Below are positions 25,643 through 27,494 of a stretch of 52,982 nt of DNA, piece by piece. Numbering within the stretch: the stretch's first letter is position 1; each line of letters begins with the position of its first letter. Below the pieces are notes generated by a model. It did no database searches and was not told where the DNA came from. It saw only the letters and a list, made by a program, of their open reading frames with translations. This DNA is from Ignavibacteriota bacterium. Lineage in GTDB: Bacteria; Bacteroidota; Ignavibacteria; Kapaibacteriales; UBA2268. The position numbers and the translations under genes were made by a program. The DNA lies in the NCBI GenBank assembly GCA_024636855.1, contig JAGXGG010000099.1:1-52982 (forward strand). The letters are read 5' to 3'.

Positions 25643-25723
25643 ATTAAAGTCTTATTTTTATTTTTAAAATCGGTGTGCTAATTTAAACCAAATGAATTAG
25701 ATTTGCAAAAGGGTATCACATTA

Positions 25724-26272
25724 TCATTCAGTGTCAGTTTCATTATTGATTTCATCGAATAATTTTTCTATTCTCATAAACTCTTCCAATTTACCTTCTA
25801 CTTTTGACCATCTTTCAATTTCTTTCAAATCAACTTCATTGCTTTTAGCAACCATTAGAGCTTGTATTAGTGATTGGTTGTCATTCCAAAAATAGTAAGC
25901 CGCCAAACGATCCTTGATACAATCAGTAACAGAGAGTAGAAACAATTTCCCTGTACTGAAATCTAAAGTTTCATAATTATTTATTGGTTCGCTACCAATT
26001 GAGAGTGGACCTTTTGGGAACTCAACAATAAATTTAAATTTTTCACTTTTAAAATATCCATTTTCAAATGTAAAACCTATTTCAGACATTATCTTTTTGA
26101 AGTCAGTTGTGTTATTTGAGTATAACTCTATAAAATCTAAATCATTTGATTGATATTTATTATGCGTATAAACACTTACGCATCCACCACCGGAGAGGAC
26201 GCAACGAAAATCATTTTTATCAAGATGAGTACAAACGAGGGCAGCTAGTTCCTGATAAGTCAAGTTAGTCAT
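25724..26272 (-). CDS. Nucleotidyltransferase-fold protein (AbiEii/DUF6036-like)
   Basis: CVLSGGGCVSVYTHNKYQSNDLDFIEL resembles GG..S-x-D-x-D of the NTase fold; later carboxylate candidate FKFIVEFP; follows a wHTH gene with ATGA overlap. Confidence 0.72.
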   Translation of the reverse strand: MTNLTYQELAALVCTHLDKNDFRCVLSGGGCVSVYTHNKYQSNDLDFIELYSNNTTDFKKIMSEIGFTFENGYFKSEKFKFIVEFPKGPLSIGSEPINNYETLDFSTGKLFLLSVTDCIKDRLAAYYFWNDNQSLIQALMVAKSNEVDLKEIERWSKVEGKLEEFMRIEKLFDEINNETDTE

Positions 26273-26598
26273 AACACCTTACCTTTTCTTCTTGGTCTTC
26301 TTCTATTATTAACTAATTTTTCATAGATTTCATCAGGAAGAAAAGTCAATGTTTTCTCAATTAGAGCAGATAGCTCTTTTAAAAAAGGGTATCGTGGGTT
26401 GAGTTTGTAAATAATCGTTCGCCCTTTTGATTCAGAATAAAGAATACTATTCTTTTCCAAATTGTCCAATTGATTCTGAATAGGGCTGAGAGAAGTCTCA
26501 TAGAATTCCGATATCTCACGAGCATACCCATCGTTACGAGCTATTATAAATTGCAAGCAACGTTCTTTATTTATATTACCAAGTATTCCTTCAATCAT
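26269..26598 (-). CDS. Winged helix-turn-helix transcriptional regulator
   Basis: AREISEFYETSLSPIQNQLDNLEKNSILYSESKGRTIIYKLNPRYPFLKELSALIEK = ArsR-like wHTH with beta-wing. Confidence 0.82.
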   Translation of the reverse strand: MIEGILGNINKERCLQFIIARNDGYAREISEFYETSLSPIQNQLDNLEKNSILYSESKGRTIIYKLNPRYPFLKELSALIEKTLTFLPDEIYEKLVNNRRRPRRKGKVL

Positions 26599-26600
26599 TA

Positions 26601-26642
26601 TCGACCTAGATATTAGTGTATATAACCTATATAATAGGTCGA
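26601..26642. promoter_or_regulatory. Nested inverted repeats, putative operator of the wHTH-NTase operon
   Basis: Perfect 8-bp inverted repeat TCGACCTA (26601-26608) / TAGGTCGA (26635-26642), with an inner ACCTAT-ATA-ATAGGT palindrome (26625-26639), immediately upstream of the start at 26598. Confidence 0.55.
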
Positions 26643-26675
26643 AATTACCAATAATTTATTTTAAATTCAAATTTT

Positions 26676-27494
26676 TTACACCCTCTCTATTTTGAAATGA
26701 TGTACTTTATGCTTCTGGTCTTGCAATCTGATACCAGCTGTACCTTCAGGTAGTATAACTATATTGGCACCCACTGTCATAGTAATAGTCTCGAATTTGG
26801 GGTGTTCGTAAACCTTAGCTTCGAATTCCTCGGCACACTCGCCGAATACTGCCCCTTCCTTATCAATGCCTAATTTACCACGTAAGCTATAACCAAAATA
26901 CTCCATCTCCTCTATCGGTTGAATTGCAGATGGATATAGTGTCTCAGCATCTTTCGGCTCGTTAGGATATACGATTTCGAGTAGTGGTGGTAATTCTAGT
27001 TTAATTCCATTTACATCCACACTCAATGGCTCTACATTGATGAAGTTAGTCAAAACACCAACTAAAGAATTGAATGAGTACATAAGCGAGCTAAAATAAG
27101 TACCCTTGTACTCCAGATTCACACCTGACTCTATGCGGGGCAAGAACTCCGCGAACGAGTTATTCCACTCATCGAAGTGGTCTTGGTGCCATATGCCAGT
27201 GTCTAGCATATCTATCTCATCCATCTCTTGTGGACAATCACTAACCTTACCCAAAAATTTAATCAAGCTGTTTTTTGGCTCTAATATGCATTCTAGCATA
27301 AGAGGCACATTGCTATCTTGCAGTATTCCGAAATAGATCATATTAACATCTACTTTCCCTATGCCGTCGAATAGCACTAATGAGTCCTTGAGCACTGGTA
27401 GCCCTTTGTAAGTAAAGTTTTCTTCTGCTATGAATAGCTGAGGTTTACCTTCTACTATTCCACTTGCTCTGCGAATTGCGTTTCTTATTTCCAT
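26676..27494 (-). CDS. Hypothetical protein
   Basis: 272-aa ORF with ordinary composition; no recognised motif. Confidence 0.7.
   Translation of the reverse strand: MEIRNAIRRASGIVEGKPQLFIAEENFTYKGLPVLKDSLVLFDGIGKVDVNMIYFGILQDSNVPLMLECILEPKNSLIKFLGKVSDCPQEMDEIDMLDTGIWHQDHFDEWNNSFAEFLPRIESGVNLEYKGTYFSSLMYSFNSLVGVLTNFINVEPLSVDVNGIKLELPPLLEIVYPNEPKDAETLYPSAIQPIEEMEYFGYSLRGKLGIDKEGAVFGECAEEFEAKVYEHPKFETITMTVGANIVILPEGTAGIRLQDQKHKVHHFKIERV

What the first reader, a model, noticed from the sequence alone, without database searches (positions are those of the whole stretch)
25724..26598. wHTH plus nucleotidyltransferase gene pair: candidate AbiE-like toxin-antitoxin module
A 109-aa ArsR-like winged-helix protein overlaps by ATGA with a 182-aa protein containing an NTase-like SGGGCVSVY...SNDLDF motif. 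A small DNA-binding protein translationally coupled to an NTase is the layout of AbiEi/AbiEii and MNT/HEPN-type systems. The gene order, coupling and operator-like repeats fit an autoregulated module, but neither protein closely resembles a characterised pair that I can name with certainty.
Basis: partly seen in the sequence, partly recalled or inferred. Interest (0 to 1): 0.6.

Follow-up and report, generated by a model that had tools for sequence, protein, structure and literature searches.

The report
Repressor–nucleotidyltransferase gene pair, probable toxin–antitoxin
Two tightly linked small genes, a DNA-binding repressor and an enzyme that attaches nucleotides to other molecules, travel together in at least a dozen bacterial phyla with their own matching control DNA; they probably form an unrecognised toxin–antitoxin family, though toxicity has not been tested.

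Summary
On the minus strand, a 109-aa winged-helix (wHTH) gene (26598–26269) overlaps by ATGA with a 182-aa nucleotidyltransferase (NTase) gene (26272–25724).

The pair is a conserved module. All 80 best relatives from 84,980 species genomes (436 relatives matched), and those read on plasmids of Bdellovibrio, Sulfurospirillum, Sulfurimonas and Leptospira, have the wHTH directly upstream, usually with the same 4-bp overlap. The catalytic Gly-Gly and Asp-x-Asp are intact.

A 42-bp double palindrome (TGACCTA…TAGGTCA, twice, 21 bp apart) lies before the wHTH gene in most of 92 loci. Its bases covary with wHTH recognition-helix residues, so the wHTH almost certainly represses its own operon.

In two sister genomes the same chromosomal slot holds a YefM–YoeB toxin–antitoxin. 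The window keeps a nine-codon yoeB scar.

It is not AbiE: no AbiEii family match, no AbiEi C-terminal domain, motifs only partly met. It is not HEPN/MNT: no HEPN gene. The NTase lies nearest DUF2204 by profile and MenT1/ANT(2'') by fold.

Best reading: an autoregulated toxin–antitoxin-like module with the NTase as toxin. Autoregulation is well supported; toxicity and antitoxicity are inferred.

The parts
26269..26598 (-). 109-aa winged-helix (ArsR-like) DNA-binding protein; predicted autorepressor and candidate antitoxin; conserved basic C-terminal tail RRPRRKGKVL
   Evidence: ArsR/SmtB and PADLOC PDC-M05A wHTH matches; solved ArsR relatives; tail R99 in 87/87, R101 84, P102 86, R103 84, K107 86 of 87
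25724..26272 (-). 182-aa nucleotidyltransferase; candidate toxin; G28-G29, S42-x-D44-x-D46, E84 and K120-D-R motifs
   Evidence: D44 and D46 83/83, E84 80 E + 3 D of 83; AlphaFold model pLDDT 92.4; nearest solved folds MenT1, ANT(2'')-Ia, LnuA
26269..26272 (-). ATGA stop/start overlap (translational coupling)
   Evidence: the same -4 overlap in 71 of 91 pairs examined
26600..26641 (-). double-palindrome operator CGACCTATTATATAGGTTATATACACTAATATCTAGGTCGAT, ending one base before the wHTH start codon
   Evidence: 42-bp motif found in upstream regions of 92 loci, 26.0 bits vs 6.5-6.6 in shuffles; the two half-operators start at 26603 and 26624, 21 bp apart
25719..25749 (+). remnant of the 3' end of a yoeB toxin gene (IIIQCQFHY-stop), antisense to and overlapping the NTase 3' end
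   Evidence: 44-bp stretch 93% identical to the yoeB end in sister genome G003, locus L137; intact YefM/YoeB there and in L138

Best explanation
The two genes are one autoregulated, horizontally mobile module. SHOWN by sequence: the wHTH and NTase are an obligate coupled pair; the NTase keeps the catalytic residues of an active nucleotidyltransferase; a double-palindrome operator directly precedes the wHTH start and covaries with its recognition helix, so two wHTH dimers on the same DNA face very probably shut off the operon's own transcription. INFERRED: the NTase is a growth-inhibiting toxin of the MenT/AbiEii working type, which transfers nucleotides to a cellular target (tRNA 3' ends are the best guess by analogy with MenT1). 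The wHTH is the antitoxin. Lacking the AbiEi C-terminal domain, it would have to restrain the NTase by direct binding, perhaps with its conserved basic disordered C-terminal tail, and/or by provoking self-phosphorylation of S42, which sits two residues before the first catalytic Asp, exactly as MenT1 T39 does before D41.
For: Pairing: 80 of 80 kept genome relatives have the wHTH directly upstream on the same strand, and 71 of 91 pairs have a -4 overlap; wHTH and NTase trees mirror each other (Mantel r 0.76, best of 2000 permutations 0.28). Catalysis: D44/D46 83/83, E84 80+3 D. Operator. Covariation: K/R at residue 38 goes with G at half-site position 5 (13/0 against 1/73, Fisher 1.4e-14); the strongest mutual-information pairs are S38-pos5, R27-pos2, P39-pos6, with Q41-pos3 fifth, in the HTH. 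Toxin-like behaviour: the slot holds YefM-YoeB in two sister genomes and the window carries a yoeB scar; patchy presence (4 of 54 genomes of the family); plasmid-borne; NTase broken with wHTH intact in L004, NTase split in L033, catalytic D44N/E84K in the fused L028; orphan NTase fragment L005; HigBA neighbours in 5 of 79 loci. Fold: MenT1 has the best TM-score, 0.57-0.58; T39/D41 roles from PMC11375011.
Against: No toxicity, antitoxicity or phage data exist for this family. Foldseek similarity to MenT1 is moderate (TM about 0.57, no hit with E <= 0.001), and antibiotic-modifying NTases score about as well by E-value. AbiEi needs its C-terminal domain for antitoxicity (PMC3985639), which this wHTH lacks. 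The single-chain model did not dock the two domains confidently (pTM 0.66, tail pLDDT about 50). Broken copies are few and some may be assembly errors. Neighbourhood HigBA counts were not compared with a background.
Confidence: 0.55

Rival explanations
1. Inducible drug- or metabolite-modifying enzyme with its own repressor: the NTase adenylylates a small molecule, as ANT(2'') and LnuA do, and the wHTH derepresses the operon when needed.
For: Weak Pfam match to aminoglycoside-2''-adenylyltransferase (E 0.14 for the window protein, best 0.0037 among 88 relatives); ANT(2'')-Ia and LnuA among the top solved folds at similar size; ArsR-like repressors often sense small ligands.
Against: Obligate pairing in 80 of 80 loci with start/stop overlap is unusual for resistance genes; no transporter or third gene co-occurs; no enrichment in clinical plasmids: the plasmid hits were 38 records, of Leptospira, Bdellovibrio, Sulfurospirillum and Sulfurimonas; swap with a YefM-YoeB slot.
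Confidence: 0.15
2. Regulatory switch: the NTase nucleotidylates the wHTH (for example in its conserved region or tail), controlling operator binding. The NTase would then be the modifier, as MntA is for HepT, not the toxin.
For: wHTH domain related to the one fused to a minimal NTase in PDC-M05A proteins (E 2e-9; 3e-13 to 2e-16 for whole M05A proteins scored with our wHTH profile), whose partner is HEPN (PMC12988326); the wHTH tail is nearly invariant; one natural wHTH-NTase fusion (L028).
Against: No HEPN or other effector gene is conserved nearby; the tail has no conserved Ser, Thr or Tyr to modify; a pure self-regulating pair would have no obvious benefit.
Confidence: 0.15
3. Split AbiEi-like antitoxin: wHTH plus NTase-fold protein together correspond to the two domains of AbiEi, and the true toxin lies elsewhere or was lost.
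For: Best solved match of the single-chain model is AbiEi 6y8q (E 2.9e-4); the AbiEi C-terminal domain has the same structural neighbours (5KQJ, 4FO1, 5UVD; PMC7319586) as our NTase.
Against: No AbiEii (PF08843) match in the window's own genome; no conserved third gene in 79 loci; the match over both domains is loose (TM 0.45 by target, rmsd 15).
Confidence: 0.06

Closest known systems
MenAT (MenT1/MenA1, MenT3/MenA3) of Mycobacterium tuberculosis
   Same: NTase fold of about 180-195 aa; MenT1 has the best TM-score of the solved structures listed (0.57-0.58); S/T-x-D-x-D with the hydroxyl residue two before the catalytic Asp (MenT1 T39/D41; PMC11375011).
   Different: About 13-15% identity over the structural match. 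MenA1 is a 68-aa protein without DNA-binding domain and MenAT1 is not transcriptionally autoregulated; here the partner is a wHTH with a conserved operator.
AbiE (AbiEi/AbiEii), type IV toxin-antitoxin
   Same: Order wHTH gene then NTase gene; autoregulation through two inverted repeats in the promoter (AbiEi 23-3-23 bp, PMC3985639; here two ~19-bp palindromes 21 bp apart); S-x-D-L-D-F catalytic motif.
   Different: Window NTase has no AbiEii match, and only 1 of 88 members one at E <= 0.1 (0.057); profile match to relatives' AbiEii covers only 58 columns (probability 79%); no AbiEi C-terminal domain; DUF1814 motif II Arg and motif IV +DxxD missing.
HEPN/MNT (HepT/MntA) and PADLOC candidate PDC-M05
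   Same: wHTH homologous to the wHTH part of PDC-M05A, a wHTH-MNT fusion.
   Different: The NTase here is not the PDC-M05A MNT domain (no match) and there is no HEPN gene; the wHTH stands alone with its own C-terminal tail.
DUF2204 / DUF6036 nucleotidyltransferases (Pfam PF09970, PF19502)
   Same: Nearest families by sequence profile: hhalign probability 91% over 133 columns to DUF2204; weak hmmscan matches in 39 and 9 of 88 members.
   Different: Below Pfam cut-off for the window protein; these families have no assigned function in the papers searched.

Membership tests
AbiE type IV toxin-antitoxin | Toxin belongs to AbiEii/DUF1814 (PF08843) | tested here: not met
   No PF08843 match to the window NTase; 1 of 88 family members at E 0.057; hhalign to eight AbiEii relatives only over the catalytic region
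AbiE type IV toxin-antitoxin | DUF1814 motifs I-IV (GG-x15-DhD with Arg in motif II; KLxAaxxR-like motif III; +DxxD motif IV) | tested here: not met
   GG-x14-DhD present (G29 to D44); the Arg position four before D44 is Y40 in 82/83; motif III-like K120-D-R-L-A-A without Arg at +7; no +DxxD (against the motif definitions in PMC3985639)
AbiE type IV toxin-antitoxin | Antitoxin AbiEi/COG5340 with wHTH plus C-terminal antitoxin domain | tested here: not met
   109-aa protein; wHTH covers about residues 1-90, then only a short disordered tail; no AbiEi-family Pfam match
AbiE type IV toxin-antitoxin | Autoregulation through paired inverted repeats in the promoter | tested here: met
   Conserved double palindrome and covariation with the recognition helix; binding itself not measured
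MenT nucleotidyltransferase toxins | NTase fold with S/T-x-D-x-D active site | tested here: met
   fold similarity moderate
MenT nucleotidyltransferase toxins | Growth inhibition by nucleotide transfer to tRNA, neutralised by the partner | not testable with these tools
   Needs expression and tRNA-modification assays
HEPN/MNT (type VII) including PDC-M05 | HEPN-domain partner gene | tested here: not met
   Partner is the wHTH in every kept relative; no conserved third gene in 79 loci
HEPN/MNT (type VII) including PDC-M05 | NTase of the MntA/MNT family (GSx..SDxD, about 100-115 aa) | tested here: not met
   182 aa, GG-x14-DxD; no PADLOC match for the NTase or its relatives
ArsR/SmtB-like winged-helix regulators | Sequence and fold match to the family | tested here: met
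   E 1.5e-4 to NF033788 but far below its cut-off; CzrA E 2e-5 to 3e-4; SqrR, CzrA, SmtB folds TM about 0.61-0.72 by target

The most novel reading that the evidence does not exclude
A previously unnamed, phylum-spanning toxin-antitoxin family in which a tail-bearing single-domain ArsR-like protein is both repressor and sole antitoxin of a DUF2204-like nucleotidyltransferase toxin, inhibiting it by plugging its basic C-terminal tail (R-x-P-R-R-x-G-K-P-L) into the acidic active site. This would be a neutralisation mechanism distinct from MenA kinase-type, MenA1-type and MntA-type control.
Probability: 0.22. Interest if true: 0.7.

Novelty: new variant of a known kind. Interest (0 to 1): 0.52.

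Why it matters
If right, it adds a widespread and unannotated toxin–antitoxin family (at least 436 relatives in 84,980 species genomes; the annotated plasmid copies are labelled hypothetical) that the defence and protein-family libraries searched here do not describe. It also supplies a ready test system: the operator half-site changes in step with recognition-helix residues across phyla, which gives a small natural protein–DNA recognition code. And it asks how a wHTH without the AbiEi C-terminal domain can silence a nucleotidyltransferase.

Tried and rejected
AbiE and HEPN/MNT membership: rejected on tested features. A third conserved gene: none; the two most widespread 'conserved' flanking clusters are antisense shadow ORFs of the pair itself. 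Phage origin: no match in 50,697 phage records; viral-contig hits are mostly near-identical Leptospira-like elements. Simple inverted-repeat scoring upstream was ambiguous (window p 0.11, about half the loci at p <= 0.05) until the joint motif search. Docking wHTH and NTase through a single chain (L077, read through its stop) gave well-folded domains without a confident interface. The first attempts at that alignment misaligned. Sigma-70 promoter and terminator patterns and Rfam: nothing notable. Solved-structure sequence search for the NTase: no significant match. Literature: no paper found in the searchable open library that describes this pair; the 2009 toxin–antitoxin survey lists only ArsR–COG3832 as a stable pair with a non-Xre HTH (PMC2701414).

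Full report
WHAT IS THERE. Both genes lie on the minus strand, wHTH first (26598–26269, 109 aa) then NTase (26272–25724, 182 aa), overlapping in ATGA. The genome holds one copy.

FAMILIES. The wHTH matches ArsR/SmtB-type regulators weakly (NF033788, E 1.5e-4, well below that model's cut-off) and solved ArsR proteins such as CzrA. It also matches the wHTH part of the PADLOC candidate PDC-M05A (E 2e-9). [quoted passage not shown] The window NTase has no Pfam, NCBIfam or PADLOC match at E <= 0.1. With 88 relatives, weak matches to DUF2204 (39 members), DUF6036 (9) and aminoglycoside-2''-adenylyltransferase (8) appear. Profile–profile comparison gives DUF2204 91% over 133 columns, AbiEii 79% over 58 columns, and an unrelated control 0.8%.

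A CONSERVED PAIR. Relatives were found in close genomes, in Bdellovibrio, Sulfurospirillum, Sulfurimonas and Leptospira plasmids, and in 436 places of the GTDB species collection, of which the best 80 were kept. Their record titles name Chloroflexota, Geobacter-type and other 'Deltaproteobacteria', KSB1, Fibrobacteres, Spirochaetes, Acidobacteria, Opitutales, Eisenbacteria, Krumholzibacteria, Aminicenantes, Clostridiales, Epsilon- and Gammaproteobacteria and Ignavibacteria. All 80 have the wHTH directly upstream on the same strand; 71 of 91 pairs overlap by exactly four bases. The two protein trees mirror each other. The kept 80 are the relatives closest to the query, so pairing among the other 356 was not examined.

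ACTIVE SITE. G28 (83/83), G29 (82/83), D44 and D46 (83/83), E84 (80, with D in three), K120 (82/83), D121 and R122 (83/83), S42 (81/83) are conserved. The model is confident (pLDDT 92.4). The nearest solved folds are ANT(2'')-Ia, LnuA, a fungal NTase, MenT1 and AbiEi; MenT1 has the highest TM-score, 0.57–0.58. S42 stands two residues before D44, as MenT1 T39, the auto-phosphorylation site, stands before D41 (PMC11375011). This parallel is read from sequence and is not a test.

OPERATOR. A joint motif search over 92 upstream regions, most from unrelated genomes, found TGACCTAaAATATAGGTCATATGACCTAaAATAtAGGTCA, 26.0 bits against 6.5–6.6 in shuffled sequence. In the window it is 26600–26641, ending one base before the ATG, with the two halves 21 bp apart. 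The half-site varies by lineage (TGACCT, TGACGT, TGACGG, TGACCAA, TGTCAGA, TTGACTA) and the recognition helix varies with it. Lys or Arg at residue 38 occurs in all 13 loci with G at position 5 and in only 1 of the 74 others (Fisher 1.4e-14). The three strongest of all residue–base pairs are S38–position 5, R27–position 2 and P39–position 6; Q41–position 3 ranks fifth. Shared ancestry inflates such statistics, but Lys (Chloroflexota) and Arg (other phyla) reach the same base separately. This is strong evidence that the wHTH itself reads the operator, hence autoregulation.

GENOMIC BEHAVIOUR. In the sister genomes G002 and G003 the slot between the same 272-aa gene and the same glyoxalase-like gene holds a YefM–YoeB toxin–antitoxin. 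The window keeps the last nine codons of yoeB (IIIQCQFHY-stop) antisense under the NTase 3' end, with the rest (565 bp in G003) reduced to about 10 bp. The pair therefore replaced, or outlived, a known toxin–antitoxin at this site; the order of events is not known. It is patchy (4 of 54 genomes of the family). Several copies are damaged: NTase frameshifted with wHTH intact (L004), NTase split (L033), fused with D44N and E84K (L028), and an orphan fragment (L005). Around 79 loci no third gene is conserved; HigBA pairs recur in five.

MECHANISM. Well supported: one transcript; a wHTH dimer on each of two palindromes blocks it; an enzymatically competent NTase is made only together with the wHTH. 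Inferred: the NTase is toxic and the wHTH neutralises it. The wHTH has no AbiEi C-terminal domain, so inhibition would be by direct binding. Its C-terminal tail R99-x-R101-P102-R103…K107 is nearly invariant and predicted disordered. It could bind the operator's AT-rich centres or the acidic NTase pocket. The single-chain model of a natural in-frame neighbour (L077) does not decide this (pTM 0.66).

COMPARED WITH KNOWN SYSTEMS. It works most like AbiE (order, autoregulation by paired repeats, NTase) and its NTase looks most like MenT1 in fold. It is not a member of AbiE or HEPN/MNT on the tested features. [quoted passage not shown] The window's genome has no AbiEii, however, so a split-antitoxin reading is unlikely here. 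No paper in the searchable library describes the pair, though subscription journals and preprints were not searchable.

VERDICT. A real, widespread, autoregulated wHTH–NTase module; probably a new variant of NTase-based toxin–antitoxin systems. Its toxicity is the untested step.

Noticed in passing
L137:3341-3878 and L138:1642-2176 (window slot 25643-26675): YefM-YoeB toxin-antitoxin occupies the same slot in two sister genomes; L137 also carries two uncharacterised (lipoprotein-like by eye) ORFs there, so the site looks like an exchange point for small modules.
   Followed up: partly
L028:3650-4549: Natural in-frame fusion of wHTH and NTase with D44 to Asn and E84 to Lys: a fused and probably inactive copy.
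   Followed up: partly
G361 contig 1 (loci L056, L073, L149, L164, L168, L169): One Chloroflexota genome carries three full wHTH copies and one partial copy, at least two of them with the NTase, so the module can be multicopy.
   Followed up: no
L059:1167-1736, L084:4986-5615, L073:768-1364, L036:5435-6073: A second NTase (DUF6036/DUF2204/AbiEii-like where scanned) lies near the pair in four loci, three of them with Chloroflexota titles, and DUF559 (Vsr-like) proteins in seven loci.
   Followed up: no
window 26641-26690: Upstream of the operator on the minus strand, ATTTG - 20 bp - TAATTTCG resembles a Bacteroidota-type promoter (TTTG / TAnnTTTG), which would place the transcription start inside the first half-operator; read by eye, not scored.
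   Followed up: no
window 26676-27494: 272-aa uncharacterised protein conserved in all four genomes of the genus searched (89%, 86% and 82% identity) next to this slot; no Pfam family above cut-off.
   Followed up: no
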